This document shows positions 21,550 through 24,993 of a stretch of 64,000 nucleotides of DNA, in pieces (the first letter of the stretch is position 1; every line of letters begins with the position of its first letter). Made by a program: the position numbers and the translations under genes. Source of the DNA: an uncultured Rhizobiaceae group bacterium (GTDB lineage Bacteria; Pseudomonadota; Alphaproteobacteria; Rhizobiales; Rhizobiaceae); the NCBI GenBank assembly GCA_938010435.1, contig CALLUS010000009.1:62001-126000 (forward strand), given 5' to 3'. The notes under the pieces are model-generated. The model had not been told where the DNA came from, ran no database searches, and saw nothing but the letters and a program-made list of their open reading frames with translations.

Positions 21550-21552
21550 TTG

Positions 21553-22434
21553 ATGGGAGAGCGGGTCACTGTTGTTGAGGTTGGCCCGCGCGATGGGCTG
21601 CAAAACGAAAAGCGTATCTTTTCAACCGAAGACAAGCTGCACTTGATTTCATTTTTGGGGAAAGCGGGTTTGACGCGCATTGAGACGACCGCTTTCGTTT
21701 CGCCCAAATGGGTGCCGCAAATGGCTGACCATGATCTTGTGATGCGTGGGGCTGAACGGCGGGACAATCTGGAACTCTCTGCGCTGGTGCCGAATGAAAA
21801 AGGTGCATTGGCGGCAATCGCAGCAGGCGCACAAGCGCTGGCGGTGTTTGCGAGTGCCTCAGAAAGTTTTGCGCGCAAAAACACCAATTGTTCGATTGCT
21901 GAAAGTTTTGAGCGTTTCAAACCCGTGGCGACTTTGGCCAAGCAGAACAATCTGCCGCTACGCGGCTATATCTCCTGCGCCATAGACTGCCCTTATGAAG
22001 GGGCGCTTGCGCCTGAAGCCGTGGGCGAAGTGGCCGACCAATTGTTGGGCTTGGGCTGCACGGAAATCGCGGTGTCCGACACAATCGGCCAAGCCACGCC
22101 CATGCAGGTGGACACGGTGTTGCGTTATGTTTTGAAAACCGTTCCTGCCGACCAAATCGCTTGTCATTTCCACGACACATCCGGCCAAGCGCTTGCCAAT
22201 GTGGATGCTGCGCTGGCGTTAGGCATCCGCATTTTCGACAGCGCCATAGGCGGCCTAGGCGGCTGCCCCTTCGCCCCGGGCGCGGCGGGAAACTTGGCCA
22301 CGGATGCGCTGGTGAAGCATTTGGGGGAGCGGGGATATGAGTGTGGGGTGAATTTGGAAGTGTTGGGGGATGCGGAGCGGTTTGTGGAAAGGGTCGACGG
22401 TTTATTAGTAGTAAAAGGCATTCTTTCCAAATAG
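21553..22434 (+). CDS. mvaB: Hydroxymethylglutaryl-CoA lyase
   Basis: 293 residues. Cleaves HMG-CoA to acetyl-CoA and acetoacetate. The TIM-barrel motifs are complete: VGPRDGLQN with catalytic Arg13, the metal-binding ACHFHDT (His205, His207) and the signature GGLGGCPFAPGAAGN with catalytic Cys238. It begins three bases after the mvaA stop, so the two enzymes form a mevalonate-catabolic operon. No transporter or MvaR-type regulator is adjacent. The last 30 bases overlap the 3' end of the convergent reverse-transcriptase gene. Notably G+C-rich (38 of 60 bases in 22201-22260). Confidence 0.93.
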   Translation: MGERVTVVEVGPRDGLQNEKRIFSTEDKLHLISFLGKAGLTRIETTAFVSPKWVPQMADHDLVMRGAERRDNLELSALVPNEKGALAAIAAGAQALAVFASASESFARKNTNCSIAESFERFKPVATLAKQNNLPLRGYISCAIDCPYEGALAPEAVGEVADQLLGLGCTEIAVSDTIGQATPMQVDTVLRYVLKTVPADQIACHFHDTSGQALANVDAALALGIRIFDSAIGGLGGCPFAPGAAGNLATDALVKHLGERGYECGVNLEVLGDAERFVERVDGLLVVKGILSK

Positions 22435-23922
22435 ATCAATTTCTTTTGGTTTTATGACCGCAGAAACTTTCTCTGGATCCTTCTTAACCAAATGCTTAGA
22501 ATCCAAAGCAGCTGTAAGTTTTTCATTGTTAACCCATTCGCTATTCCAGAGTTGAACCACTCCACCATTTACAATCTTGCAAATAGCTTCGTCGCTTTCA
22601 AAATCAAAGCCGACTGACTTTGGTTTTGTCACTCGTTGCAACCAAATTTCAAGGTACCCGTTGTTTGGAATTTTACTCATTTTCAATTGAACAGATTCCC
22701 ATAGGCTCTGCTTTTTCGATGTTTCCTCTAATGAGATTAGGTGGCTTAGAATGCCTGCAATTGCTGGGAAAGTTTGAGGTGAATTGAAAGCAATATCTGA
22801 AAGAATTGCTACCTGAACTTCCAAATCATCGGGTTTAGTTTTCAACTTAAAGATGCTTTTATGCATTTCTGCGAGCAATTTTCTCAATGCTCCTGAGTTT
22901 GGGTGTTTCAATCCAAAAGAGTGAAGTCGGAGCAGTTTTTTCTGGAGCGTTTTTGCGTTTGTGTCGCCGAGATCCTGTAGATCAATTGCAGCCTTTTTAT
23001 CTGCTTTGATAGAACCTTCGACAACGTTTGTGGCGACTAGAGTCTTTGCCATACTCAGCCGCATTCCAACAGTTCTTAAATTGTCACTGACCGCCTTTAA
23101 TATTCTTTGACCTTGTTCGTCATTGTTTGTGAAAATCCTATAGTCATCACGATAGCGAATTATTTTAAAATCCCTCATGGAGCTTAGTTCTTCGGTTATA
23201 AGTTCATCAACAAATCCAAGAACTAACTCGGCAATTAGGTCCATTAAAACGGAACCTTGGCTTATGCCATTTGTCTGTCCATATCGTCCTGATTGAATAT
23301 GCCTATCGATTACATTTCCGAATAGGTTTTTATTACCGATTTCCCTTTTTGAGTCTTCTATTCCGTGAAGAGCCCACGGGATGCTGTGTGTGTAAAGTGA
23401 TCCATAGCAATCTGTAACATCTGTATGTAGCAAATGGCTGTATTGCAGAGATTCAACAATTGATATTTGTTCAACCTGTTGCCACCATGCCATCACTTGG
23501 GCAGCAACATCATTTTCTTCTTCATTAGTTATTACTGGTAAGCTGCAACAGCTAACGACTGTTTTTTCGAAATCTTTGAATCTGTTTACAATGAATTTCC
23601 AATTACCTTTTTCGCAAATATTATTCACGAGTGACACGTAAATTGCAGGATGCATCAACTCGAAAGGGCGCCAGCCAAACCGACCATCTTTATTTGCGAT
23701 GAGACTGTAATTCACCTTATCTAATTTGGCAGGCCATGTGTCGGTCTTAAATTCTTTAAAGTCCTTGGTTTTTAATATTTTGGACACATCTGACAAAATT
23801 TTTTGGAAGCTCAGATATTTGGGGAAATCTAAATTGAAATAACTTTCACTTTCTAACAAATGCTTTTTGGCTTCATCAGCGCTGAGCGAAGTAATTAGCT
23901 TAATATTTTTTGAGTTGATCAT
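22405..23922 (-). CDS. Abi/UG-type reverse transcriptase (candidate defence protein)
   Basis: 505 residues. The polymerase domain covers about 85-295: motif A HTDVTDCYGSLYTHSI (Asp168), motif B NGISQGSVLM (218-227) and catalytic motif C RYRDDY (YRDD at 257-260), followed by GMRLSMAKT. The remaining 200 residues are mostly helical and resemble the alpha-repeat region of Abi/UG reverse transcriptases; no maturase, endonuclease or nitrilase domain and no nearby intron or retron RNA was seen. Members of these groups act in phage defence (DRT, AbiK, AbiA), but the exact class is not assigned. A+T-rich (24 G+C of 60 in 22861-22920). No ribosome site precedes the ATG at 23922. Confidence 0.85.
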   Translation of the reverse strand: MINSKNIKLITSLSADEAKKHLLESESYFNLDFPKYLSFQKILSDVSKILKTKDFKEFKTDTWPAKLDKVNYSLIANKDGRFGWRPFELMHPAIYVSLVNNICEKGNWKFIVNRFKDFEKTVVSCCSLPVITNEEENDVAAQVMAWWQQVEQISIVESLQYSHLLHTDVTDCYGSLYTHSIPWALHGIEDSKREIGNKNLFGNVIDRHIQSGRYGQTNGISQGSVLMDLIAELVLGFVDELITEELSSMRDFKIIRYRDDYRIFTNNDEQGQRILKAVSDNLRTVGMRLSMAKTLVATNVVEGSIKADKKAAIDLQDLGDTNAKTLQKKLLRLHSFGLKHPNSGALRKLLAEMHKSIFKLKTKPDDLEVQVAILSDIAFNSPQTFPAIAGILSHLISLEETSKKQSLWESVQLKMSKIPNNGYLEIWLQRVTKPKSVGFDFESDEAICKIVNGGVVQLWNSEWVNNEKLTAALDSKHLVKKDPEKVSAVIKPKEIDLFGKNAFYY

Positions 23923-23987
23923 GTTATATTGTTCAAAAATTTAATTCTTAAACGTAGAACTGATTTCATGTAGTTTTGTAAAGTAAA

Positions 23988-24200
23988 ATGTTGCAAATGA
24001 CCAACCTCATCACCCTCAACGGAACCAGTAGTTCAGGCAAAACGTCTATTACGCGTAAGCTGCAAAAACCGTTGCTGCAGGTTTGGTTGAACTTTTCGAT
24101 TGATTCCGTGCTGTACGCTCTGCCTCAGGCGGAGTTGGGCTCGATGATCTCTGGTGAGACAATCACGCGGGATGAACATCATTATCCCAAACTTGTTTAG
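23988..24200 (+). pseudogene. Truncated chloramphenicol phosphotransferase-like protein
   Basis: 70 codons, with a second ATG at 23997 that gives MTNLITLNGTSSSGKTS. The P-loop (GTSSSGKT) and the following WLNFSIDSVLYALP match the N-terminus of the chloramphenicol 3-O-phosphotransferase family, whose members are about 175-180 residues long. The frame stops at TAG 24198, so two thirds of the protein, including the rest of the kinase, is missing; what follows is repeat DNA. It is divergent from the reverse transcriptase, 65 bases away. Most likely a gene remnant. Confidence 0.65.
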
Positions 24201-24213
24201 GGCTCTGACGGCT

Positions 24214-24248
24214 TGTCATCCTCGGGCTTGACCCAAAGTCCTATGACA
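24214..24248. repeat. Short palindromic intergenic element
   Basis: The arms TGTCAT and ATGACA bound a 23-base interior containing CTCGGGCTTGACCC. Sequences of this form recur in intergenic DNA of many alphaproteobacteria; only this copy was seen in the window. Confidence 0.5.
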
Positions 24249-24284
24249 GGGGTATTTGAACTCAATCGAAAACTCAAATTGGTT

Positions 24285-24413
24285 CTCCACCCTTGAGGGG
24301 GAGGTGTCGCCTTAGGCGATAGAAGTGGTAGCGCGCCAAGCGCGCTAACTTATTCGTTTTGACCCCTCTCTGCCTTCGCTGCGCTCACGCATCCCTCCCT
24401 CAAGGGGCTGGAG
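24285..24413. repeat. Composite palindromic repeat (REP/RIME-like)
   Basis: Imperfect terminal arms CTCCACCCTTGAGGG (24285-24299) and CCCTCAAGGGGCTGGAG (24397-24413) enclose two internal hairpins: TCGCC-TTA-GGCGA (24307-24319) and a 7-bp TAGCGCG/CGCGCTA stem with 5-base loop (24329-24347). There is no open frame of interest. With the preceding element it fills the 325-base gap 24201-24525. Confidence 0.6.
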
Positions 24414-24525
24414 TGGTCATGCCGAAAAACCGTATAAGCTCATTCTGCTCCCGCAAGTATCGGGTGGATAGGGGCGCAGCGGTTTCATAGTTTCTGTTCA
24501 CATTCAACGAACCGAGGAACTGAAA

Positions 24526-24993
24526 ATGGATTTTGCAATCAAAGGAATTTCTGCCGACGACTTTCGTCATCTCTACGGATTGTCTGATGAAGAATTGGCG
24601 GCCAAAGGTGCAAAGCGATATGTGTGCGATAACGCGCCGGGATATCCCGACCGCGTTGAAATGCGCGATGCCGAAATCGGGGAAACCCTGTTGTTGGTCA
24701 ACCACGTGAGCATGGGCAAAGATTCCCCCTACAAAGCGTCCCACGCGATATATGTGCGTGAAGGTGCGGAGGACACGTACGAAGCCAAAAACGAAGTGCC
24801 GCCTGTTATGTATAACAGGTTGCTTTCGCTCCGCGCTTTCGATCAAGCCGGCATGATTGTCGATGCCGATGTGGTCACGGGCAACGATATTCAACCGAGC
24901 ATTGAGCGTCTTTTGGAAAATGAAAACGTGGAACACATCGATGCCCACAATGCAGCCAGAGGCTGTTTTTCAGGACGCATTACACGGGCGTGA
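24526..24993 (+). CDS. DUF1203 domain protein
   Basis: 155 residues. The pattern MDFAIKGISADDFRHL, then HAIYVREGA and RLLSLRAFDQAGMIVDADVV, is that of DUF1203, a small cytosolic family of unknown function. It has no signal or membrane segment. A ribosome site GAGGAAC lies about 8 bases before the ATG. It closes the mosaic block that begins at mvaA. Confidence 0.82.
   Translation: MDFAIKGISADDFRHLYGLSDEELAAKGAKRYVCDNAPGYPDRVEMRDAEIGETLLLVNHVSMGKDSPYKASHAIYVREGAEDTYEAKNEVPPVMYNRLLSLRAFDQAGMIVDADVVTGNDIQPSIERLLENENVEHIDAHNAARGCFSGRITRA

What the first reader, a model, noticed from the sequence alone, without database searches (positions are those of the whole stretch)
22405..24500. Reverse-transcriptase locus as a candidate defence system
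A 505-residue reverse transcriptase with YRDD and an about 200-residue helical C-terminus, without maturase, endonuclease or retron RNA, fits Abi/UG (DRT) defence enzymes. Three features are unusual: it stands in a locally A+T-rich patch against a G+C-rich neighbour, its last 30 bases lie inside the 3' end of mvaB, and it is flanked by a truncated kinase gene and palindromic repeats. I cannot assign its UG class, so it may be a new or poorly known type.
Basis: partly seen in the sequence, partly recalled or inferred. Interest (0 to 1): 0.78.

Follow-up and report, generated by a model that had tools for sequence, protein, structure and literature searches.

The report
Stand-alone Abi-P2 phage-defence reverse transcriptase
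The gene is a lone member of Abi-P2, a known family of phage-defence polymerases that build random DNA onto themselves; it was inserted at the end of a metabolic gene, and it is ordinary in kind, although some of its cousins look like integron gene cassettes.

Summary
In detail: a 505-residue YRDD reverse transcriptase at 22405-23922 (-), in the A+T-richest part of the window, overlapping mvaB by 30 bases. Its class can be assigned: it matches the PADLOC AbiP2 profile end to end (E 1.3e-187; next, RT_UG14, 1e-58), and Abi-P2 (7r08) is its nearest solved structure by sequence and by predicted fold. Tyr61, which primes DNA synthesis in Abi-P2, is Tyr36 here, kept in 104 of 105 aligned rows. Two same-genus genomes keep mvaB and DUF1203 without the gene; mvaB homology stops at 22387, so the insertion replaced the mvaB tail and made the overlap. 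The kinase remnant and the palindrome are older backbone. There is little room for a guide RNA, and relatives share none. Most likely function (inferred): protein-primed, template-free DNA synthesis causing abortive infection. New member of a known family, not a new type. Side observation: several relatives from different phyla have attC-like boundaries, as one-gene integron cassettes would; the window copy has none, and no relative was shown to sit beside an integrase.

The parts
22405..23922 (-). Abi-P2 family reverse transcriptase, 505 aa
   Evidence: PADLOC AbiP2 622 bits over residues 5-501; PDB 7r08 by sequence and by fold
23815..23817 (-). codon of Tyr36, counterpart of the priming Tyr61 of Abi-P2
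   Evidence: mapping; Y in 104 of 105 rows; function of Tyr61 from PMC9508834
23419..23421 (-). codon of motif-A Asp168 (P2 Asp192)
   Evidence: D in 105 of 105 rows; mapping
23143..23154 (-). YRDD, residues 257-260 (P2 282-285)
22388..23999 (.). insertion: from the end of mvaB homology to the first residue of the kinase remnant matched by Pfam (right border approximate; DNA homology with G008 is shown only from 24104)
21550..22434 (+). mvaB (HMG-CoA lyase); its codons from about 22388 on have no match in G013 or G008
   Evidence: Pfam HMGL-like residues 6-279
23988..24197 (+). remnant of a CPT-like kinase gene, backbone rather than cargo
   Evidence: 24104-24159 matches G008 at 41 of 56 bases, E 5e-6
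24290..24406 (.). REP-like inverted repeat, backbone
   Evidence: match to G008 from 24324 on; three more copies in the genome
24526..24993 (+). DUF1203 gene, right neighbour kept in G013 and G008

Best explanation
A stand-alone Abi-P2 abortive-infection polymerase, gained horizontally and inserted as little more than one gene into the last codons of mvaB. Shown here: family, conserved catalytic and priming residues, predicted fold, absence from same-genus genomes that keep the flanking genes, no recognisable partner gene and no shared flanking RNA. Inferred from studied members: it assembles into trimers (perhaps hexamers), attaches the first nucleotide to Tyr36, and extends untemplated single-stranded DNA through the channel between the RT and helical domains; during phage infection this stops phage production, probably by arresting or killing the cell. 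What triggers it and how the DNA acts are open for the family (PMC9508834, discussion).
For: AbiP2 profile over the whole length, 622 bits against 197 for the next class. 7r08 is the best PDB match, E 2.9e-77, and its six chains are the six best fold matches, TM 0.82-0.83, for a model with pLDDT 89.9. Tyr36 = Tyr61 of Abi-P2; Y61F of Abi-P2 makes no DNA while Y46F does, and the Tyr46 position is His21 here and variable. P2 orf570 protects against phage T5 (introduction of PMC9508834). Insertion between mvaB and DUF1203. No full-length copy in 60 relatives.
Against: No activity was tested. Identity to the characterised P2 protein is only 33%. The gene stands alone: ten neighbours gave no defence match beyond one 26-bit match of an FAD protein to a desaturase model. 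Oligomer state was not modelled.
Confidence: 0.9

Rival explanations
1. An RNA-templated defence reverse transcriptase (working like DRT2, DRT9 or DRT10) with an undetected non-coding RNA.
For: Several DRT families work with an RNA (abstracts listed); an RNA need not be conserved in sequence, and an RNA encoded elsewhere cannot be excluded.
Against: 77 bases lie between the start codon and the first kinase residue matched by Pfam, 181 to the first shared kinase DNA; on the other side 17 bases to mvaB homology. 4 of 1275 upstream and 2 of 1225 downstream pairs of relatives share DNA, none with the window. DRT2 and DRT9 score far lower in fold, TM about 0.31-0.33.
Confidence: 0.05
2. A member of another UG/DRT class near Abi-P2 (UG14, DRT6, DRT4).
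For: These are the next profiles (197, 154 and 135 bits) and DRT6 and UG15/DRT4 the next folds (TM 0.61-0.63).
Against: AbiP2 leads by over 400 bits and covers residues 5-501.
Confidence: 0.02
3. The window copy is itself an integron cassette or a recent one that landed at a secondary site.
For: Some relatives have attC-like boundaries; it is a one-gene insertion.
Against: No upstream box within 300 bases; two downstream-type boxes lie 164 and 179 bases past the stop, inside mvaB. No folded candidate within 300 bases on either side. Longest reverse-complement match between its flanks is 6 bases. No integron integrase over the cut-off in the genome. In the tree it lies outside the group that holds those relatives.
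Confidence: 0.08
4. A decaying gene without function.
For: Copies in pieces exist elsewhere: Agrobacterium plasmid in two frames, G303 in pieces.
Against: Open over its whole length with intact catalytic and priming residues.
Confidence: 0.07

Closest known systems
Abi-P2 of E. coli P2-like prophages (P2-EC30 orf570; PDB 7r08)
   Same: Full-length homology, same fold, YRDD, the priming tyrosine, gene alone
   Different: 33% identity; lies in a chromosome between metabolic genes rather than in a P2-like prophage; the shorter N-terminus lacks about 25 residues of the P2 protein
Abi-P2 relatives of several phyla (L085-L138 and others; Agrobacterium and Paracoccus plasmids)
   Same: 50-62% identity, same length and motifs
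   Different: Different neighbours; some with attC-like borders, which the window lacks
DRT6, UG15/DRT4, AbiK
   Same: Next folds (TM 0.54-0.63)
   Different: Much weaker sequence match: 154 bits Drt6, 135 Drt4, 102 AbiK, against 622 for AbiP2

Membership tests
Abi-P2 | Full-length match to the family profile, best among RT classes | tested here: met
   622 bits, residues 5-501, profile 2-486 of 489; next 197 bits
Abi-P2 | RT catalytic aspartates and YxDD | tested here: met
   Asp168, Asp259, Asp260 in 105 of 105 rows; Tyr257 and Arg258 in 104
Abi-P2 | Priming tyrosine at the Tyr61 position | tested here: met
   Tyr36; 104 of 105 rows
Abi-P2 | Two-lobed fold: RT domain plus helical domain | tested here: met
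   predicted model pLDDT 89.9; 7r08 TM 0.82-0.83
Abi-P2 | Single gene without RNA partner | tested here: met
   no shared flanking DNA with relatives, no Rfam match above chance; a distant RNA gene is not excluded
Abi-P2 | Trimer or hexamer | not tested
   only a single chain was predicted
[quoted passage not shown]
   needs biochemistry
Abi-P2 | Phage protection | not testable with these tools
   needs infection assays
Retron | Retron RT as best class and an msr-msd RNA beside it | tested here: not met
   retron St85 model 24 bits against a cut-off of 235; no retron RNA in Rfam search
Group II intron | Maturase-type RT and intron RNA | tested here: not met
   44.7 bits against a cut-off of 300; no intron RNA in Rfam search
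Integron cassette (window copy) | attC at the gene borders; integrase in the genome | tested here: not met
Integron cassette (some relatives) | attC core boxes at both borders, complementary to each other | tested here: met
   8 of 49 with both boxes, 0.14 expected; core matches of 9-12 bases between the flanks in L086, L089, L098, L099, L107
Integron cassette (some relatives) | Gene in a cassette array next to an integron integrase | tested here: inconclusive
   integrase over cut-off in 5 of 12 genomes, all five on other contigs and all five with one box only; whole-attC scans found little

The most novel reading that the evidence does not exclude
The branch of Abi-P2 polymerases nearest this gene includes a form that moves between phyla as one-gene integron cassettes, and the window copy is a landed member of the same mobile pool that has lost, or never carried, its recombination site.
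Probability: 0.2. Interest if true: 0.5.

Novelty: new member of a known kind. Interest (0 to 1): 0.25.

Why it matters
It settles the class, so the locus need not be pursued as a new DRT type. It is a clean case of a one-gene defence insertion with RT-free sister sites, which explains the odd overlap with mvaB. If the cassette reading of some relatives holds, it gives Abi-P2 polymerases a route of spread besides prophages and plasmids, in line with published work on integrons that carry phage defence.

Tried and rejected
Single-protein pattern searches found no relative in genome contigs or viral contigs; the alignment query did. A first attC detector was too strict: 0 of 72 upstream, 1 of 71 downstream, none on both sides. 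A fold-based one gave 0 upstream and 3 downstream of 50, against 0 of 150 shuffled sets; one of the three (L124) lacks the usual core. A scan for whole attC pairs over entire loci was uninformative: 1 in the 12 chosen loci (0.0 expected), 4 in the other 38 (2.6 expected). Terminal repeats or target-site duplications of the insert: only short matches of the kind listed, none seen at both borders. Retron, group II intron and other DRT readings rejected on profiles. Literature: no held paper has 'Abi-P2' or 'AbiP2' together with 'integron'; most subscription papers are not held, so this does not prove novelty.

Full report
What is there. The reverse transcriptase reads from an ATG at 23922 to a stop at 22405 on the minus strand, 505 residues. 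Its GC is 38.1% in a window of 47.8%; of 625 sliding stretches of its length 2 are lower, both overlapping it. One copy was found in its 3.57 Mb genome.

Class. PADLOC AbiP2 scores 622 bits over residues 5-501; the next profiles are RT_UG14 197, Drt6 154 and Drt4 135 bits (51 families matched, 25 shown). None of the 8 NCBIfam families matched is an AbiP2 model and all 8 are far below their cut-offs. Pfam sees only RVT_1. The best PDB match is 7r08, E 2.9e-77 over residues 8-497. AlphaFold2 with 44 aligned sequences gives pLDDT 89.9 and pTM 0.91. The six chains of 7r08, Abi-P2, are the six best fold matches (TM 0.82-0.83); DRT6 and UG15/DRT4 follow at 0.61-0.63 and AbiK at 0.54-0.59.

Active residues. 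In PMC9508834 (I read the introduction, three results sections and the discussion) Y61F of Abi-P2 makes no DNA while Y46F behaves like wild type. Mapped through the P2-EC30 protein, whose Tyr282 falls on the YRDD tyrosine as in the paper, Tyr61 is Tyr36 of the window protein and Tyr46 is His21. In 105 aligned rows (the window and 104 of 113 loci; nine incomplete ones dropped) position 36 is Y in 104, the exception being L197, a distant match; Asp168, Asp259 and Asp260 are invariant; position 21 is Y 43, H 41, F 20, N 1. Tyr28 (P2 Tyr53) is Y in 103 of 105; the sections I read report no test of it.

Distribution. Of 60 relatives searched (54 of the 61 genomes including its own are at least 90% complete) none has a full-length homologue; G041 and G042 have weak partial matches (32% and 30%), probably other RTs. 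Of 385 genomes drawn from the class 53 have some match to the AbiP2 profile, but only the window's genome and G391 are covered end to end; G303 and G359 have pieces. Of 50,697 phage records 9 match, 6 over at least 80% of the query, among them P2-EC30, P2-EC58 and pro147. Of 72,556 plasmid records 205 match, 22 over at least 80%. In genome contigs 372 stretches encode a relative at tblastn E 1e-3 or better, not all of them necessarily Abi-P2, and the best 80 were kept; 33 in viral contigs. The nearest are 50-62% identical and come from alpha-, beta- and gammaproteobacteria, Geothrix, Kiritimatiellia, Chloroflexi, Bipolaricaulota and others. In a tree of 77 rows (window, 73 of the 80, 3 of the 33 viral; midpoint root) the window is a lone branch of 0.54 beside 53 rows that bear 11 phylum labels. 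Over the whole tree the labels need 21 changes (least possible 16; shuffled mean 32.3), so they are clustered yet not tidy. Horizontal transfer is the plain reading, though several rows are metagenome bins.

The insertion. G013 and G008, of the same genus, keep mvaB followed by DUF1203. Their DNA matches the window up to 22386 and 22387, inside mvaB. With G008 it resumes at 24104-24159, in the kinase remnant (41 of 56 bases, E 5e-6), and again at 24324-24558 (palindrome and DUF1203 leader); with G013 at 24452. In G013 about 450 bases lie between mvaB and DUF1203; in G008 about 1.8 kb, with a different 223-residue ORF that has no PADLOC match. So this spot varies between species, and in the window it holds the RT. 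The window mvaB runs on into the antisense of the RT 3' end: 15 residues follow the shared Phe-Val, against 4 in G013 and 7 in G008 (counted by eye). The HMGL-like domain still matches to residue 279, so the lyase is probably intact (inference). The overlap is a by-product of the insertion.

No RNA, no partner. From the RT start codon it is 77 bases to the first kinase residue matched by Pfam and 181 to the first kinase DNA shared with G008; beyond the RT stop it is 17 bases to mvaB homology. Among 50 intact relatives of at least 50% identity plus the window, 4 of 1275 upstream and 2 of 1225 downstream pairs share DNA at E 0.01, none with the window; the longest are between close kin, while L089/L105 upstream (26 bases) and L098/L101 downstream (28 bases) fall on the attC-like boxes described below. 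Ten neighbours show no PADLOC match beyond one of 26 bits to a desaturase model. In the Pediococcus and Lactiplantibacillus plasmids the next gene is a type IIG restriction enzyme. In G391 ORFs that look like phage terminase and primase by eye lie nearby (not tested). No fixed partner was seen.

Relatives as integron cassettes. The upstream ends of several near relatives carry motifs like attC cores (consensus recalled). Of near relatives (at least 50% identity; 49 of 50 with long enough flanks) 14 have the upstream box (2.6 expected from shuffles), 11 the downstream box (2.5) and 8 both (0.14); wrong-way boxes number 1 and 4. Of 21 of 23 farther relatives 1 has the upstream box, 2 the downstream box, none both. 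A test without motif asks for the longest reverse-complement match between the two flanks: it is such a core in L098 (12 bases), L107 (11), L099 (10), L086 and L089 (9). At 9 bases or more there are 7 of 49 against 2.1 in permuted pairs (maximum 5.1), the other two (L100, L102) not being cores; at 8 or more 12 against 7.9 (maximum 11.5); farther relatives show 2 of 21 at 9 or more against 1.2.

Integrases. I picked 12 box-bearing loci by eye; L090, L096, L107, L119 and L122 also had a box but were left out. Integron integrases over the NCBIfam cut-off occur in 5 of these 12 genomes (L094, L101, L102, L103, L112), against 0 of 12 picked loci without boxes, one of which (L097) has a partial match under the cut-off, and 0 of 14 control genomes. 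I hold cassette carriage likely for at least five relatives on border evidence, with linkage to an integrase not shown. The window copy shows none of it.

Prior work. [quoted passage not shown] PMC11077055, PMC13275509 and PMC8934634 were seen as passages; PMC8934634 says that some AbiP2 RTs lie in CRISPR-Cas loci. No held paper has both Abi-P2, in either spelling, and integron.

Verdict. A new member of the known Abi-P2 family, ordinary in kind, with a clear insertion history; the border evidence in relatives deserves a check.

Noticed in passing
L086, L087, L089, L090, L098, L099, L105, L107 (borders of the RT gene): attC-like core boxes on both sides of the Abi-P2 gene, 8 of 49 near relatives against 0.14 expected: possible one-gene integron cassettes in several phyla.
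   Followed up: partly
window 23839-23841 (-), RT residue 28: Tyr28 (P2 Tyr53) is as conserved as the priming tyrosine (Y in 103 of 105 rows) and lies near it; the sections of PMC9508834 that I read report no test of it.
   Followed up: no
L073 552-1223 (-): In G008 a different 223-residue ORF without PADLOC match occupies the mvaB-DUF1203 spot: the spot takes up different genes in different species.
   Followed up: partly
window 24290-24406; G000:C2:393814-393942, C1:53934-54059, C15:13713-13843: REP-like palindrome with three further genome copies at 70-75% identity, also at the same place in G008.
   Followed up: partly
L064 7645-8010 (+): In the Agrobacterium plasmid a 121-residue ORF overlaps the RT start by 4 bases, no PADLOC match; the DNA upstream of the RT in Rhizobium L095 and L096 is shared between them and looks like its end by eye. 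Possible partner in this sub-branch only.
   Followed up: no
L064 8001-9501; L072 6644-7634: Abi-P2 copies in more than one frame or in pieces (Agrobacterium plasmid, G303), as if decaying; left as they are.
   Followed up: no
   Followed up: no
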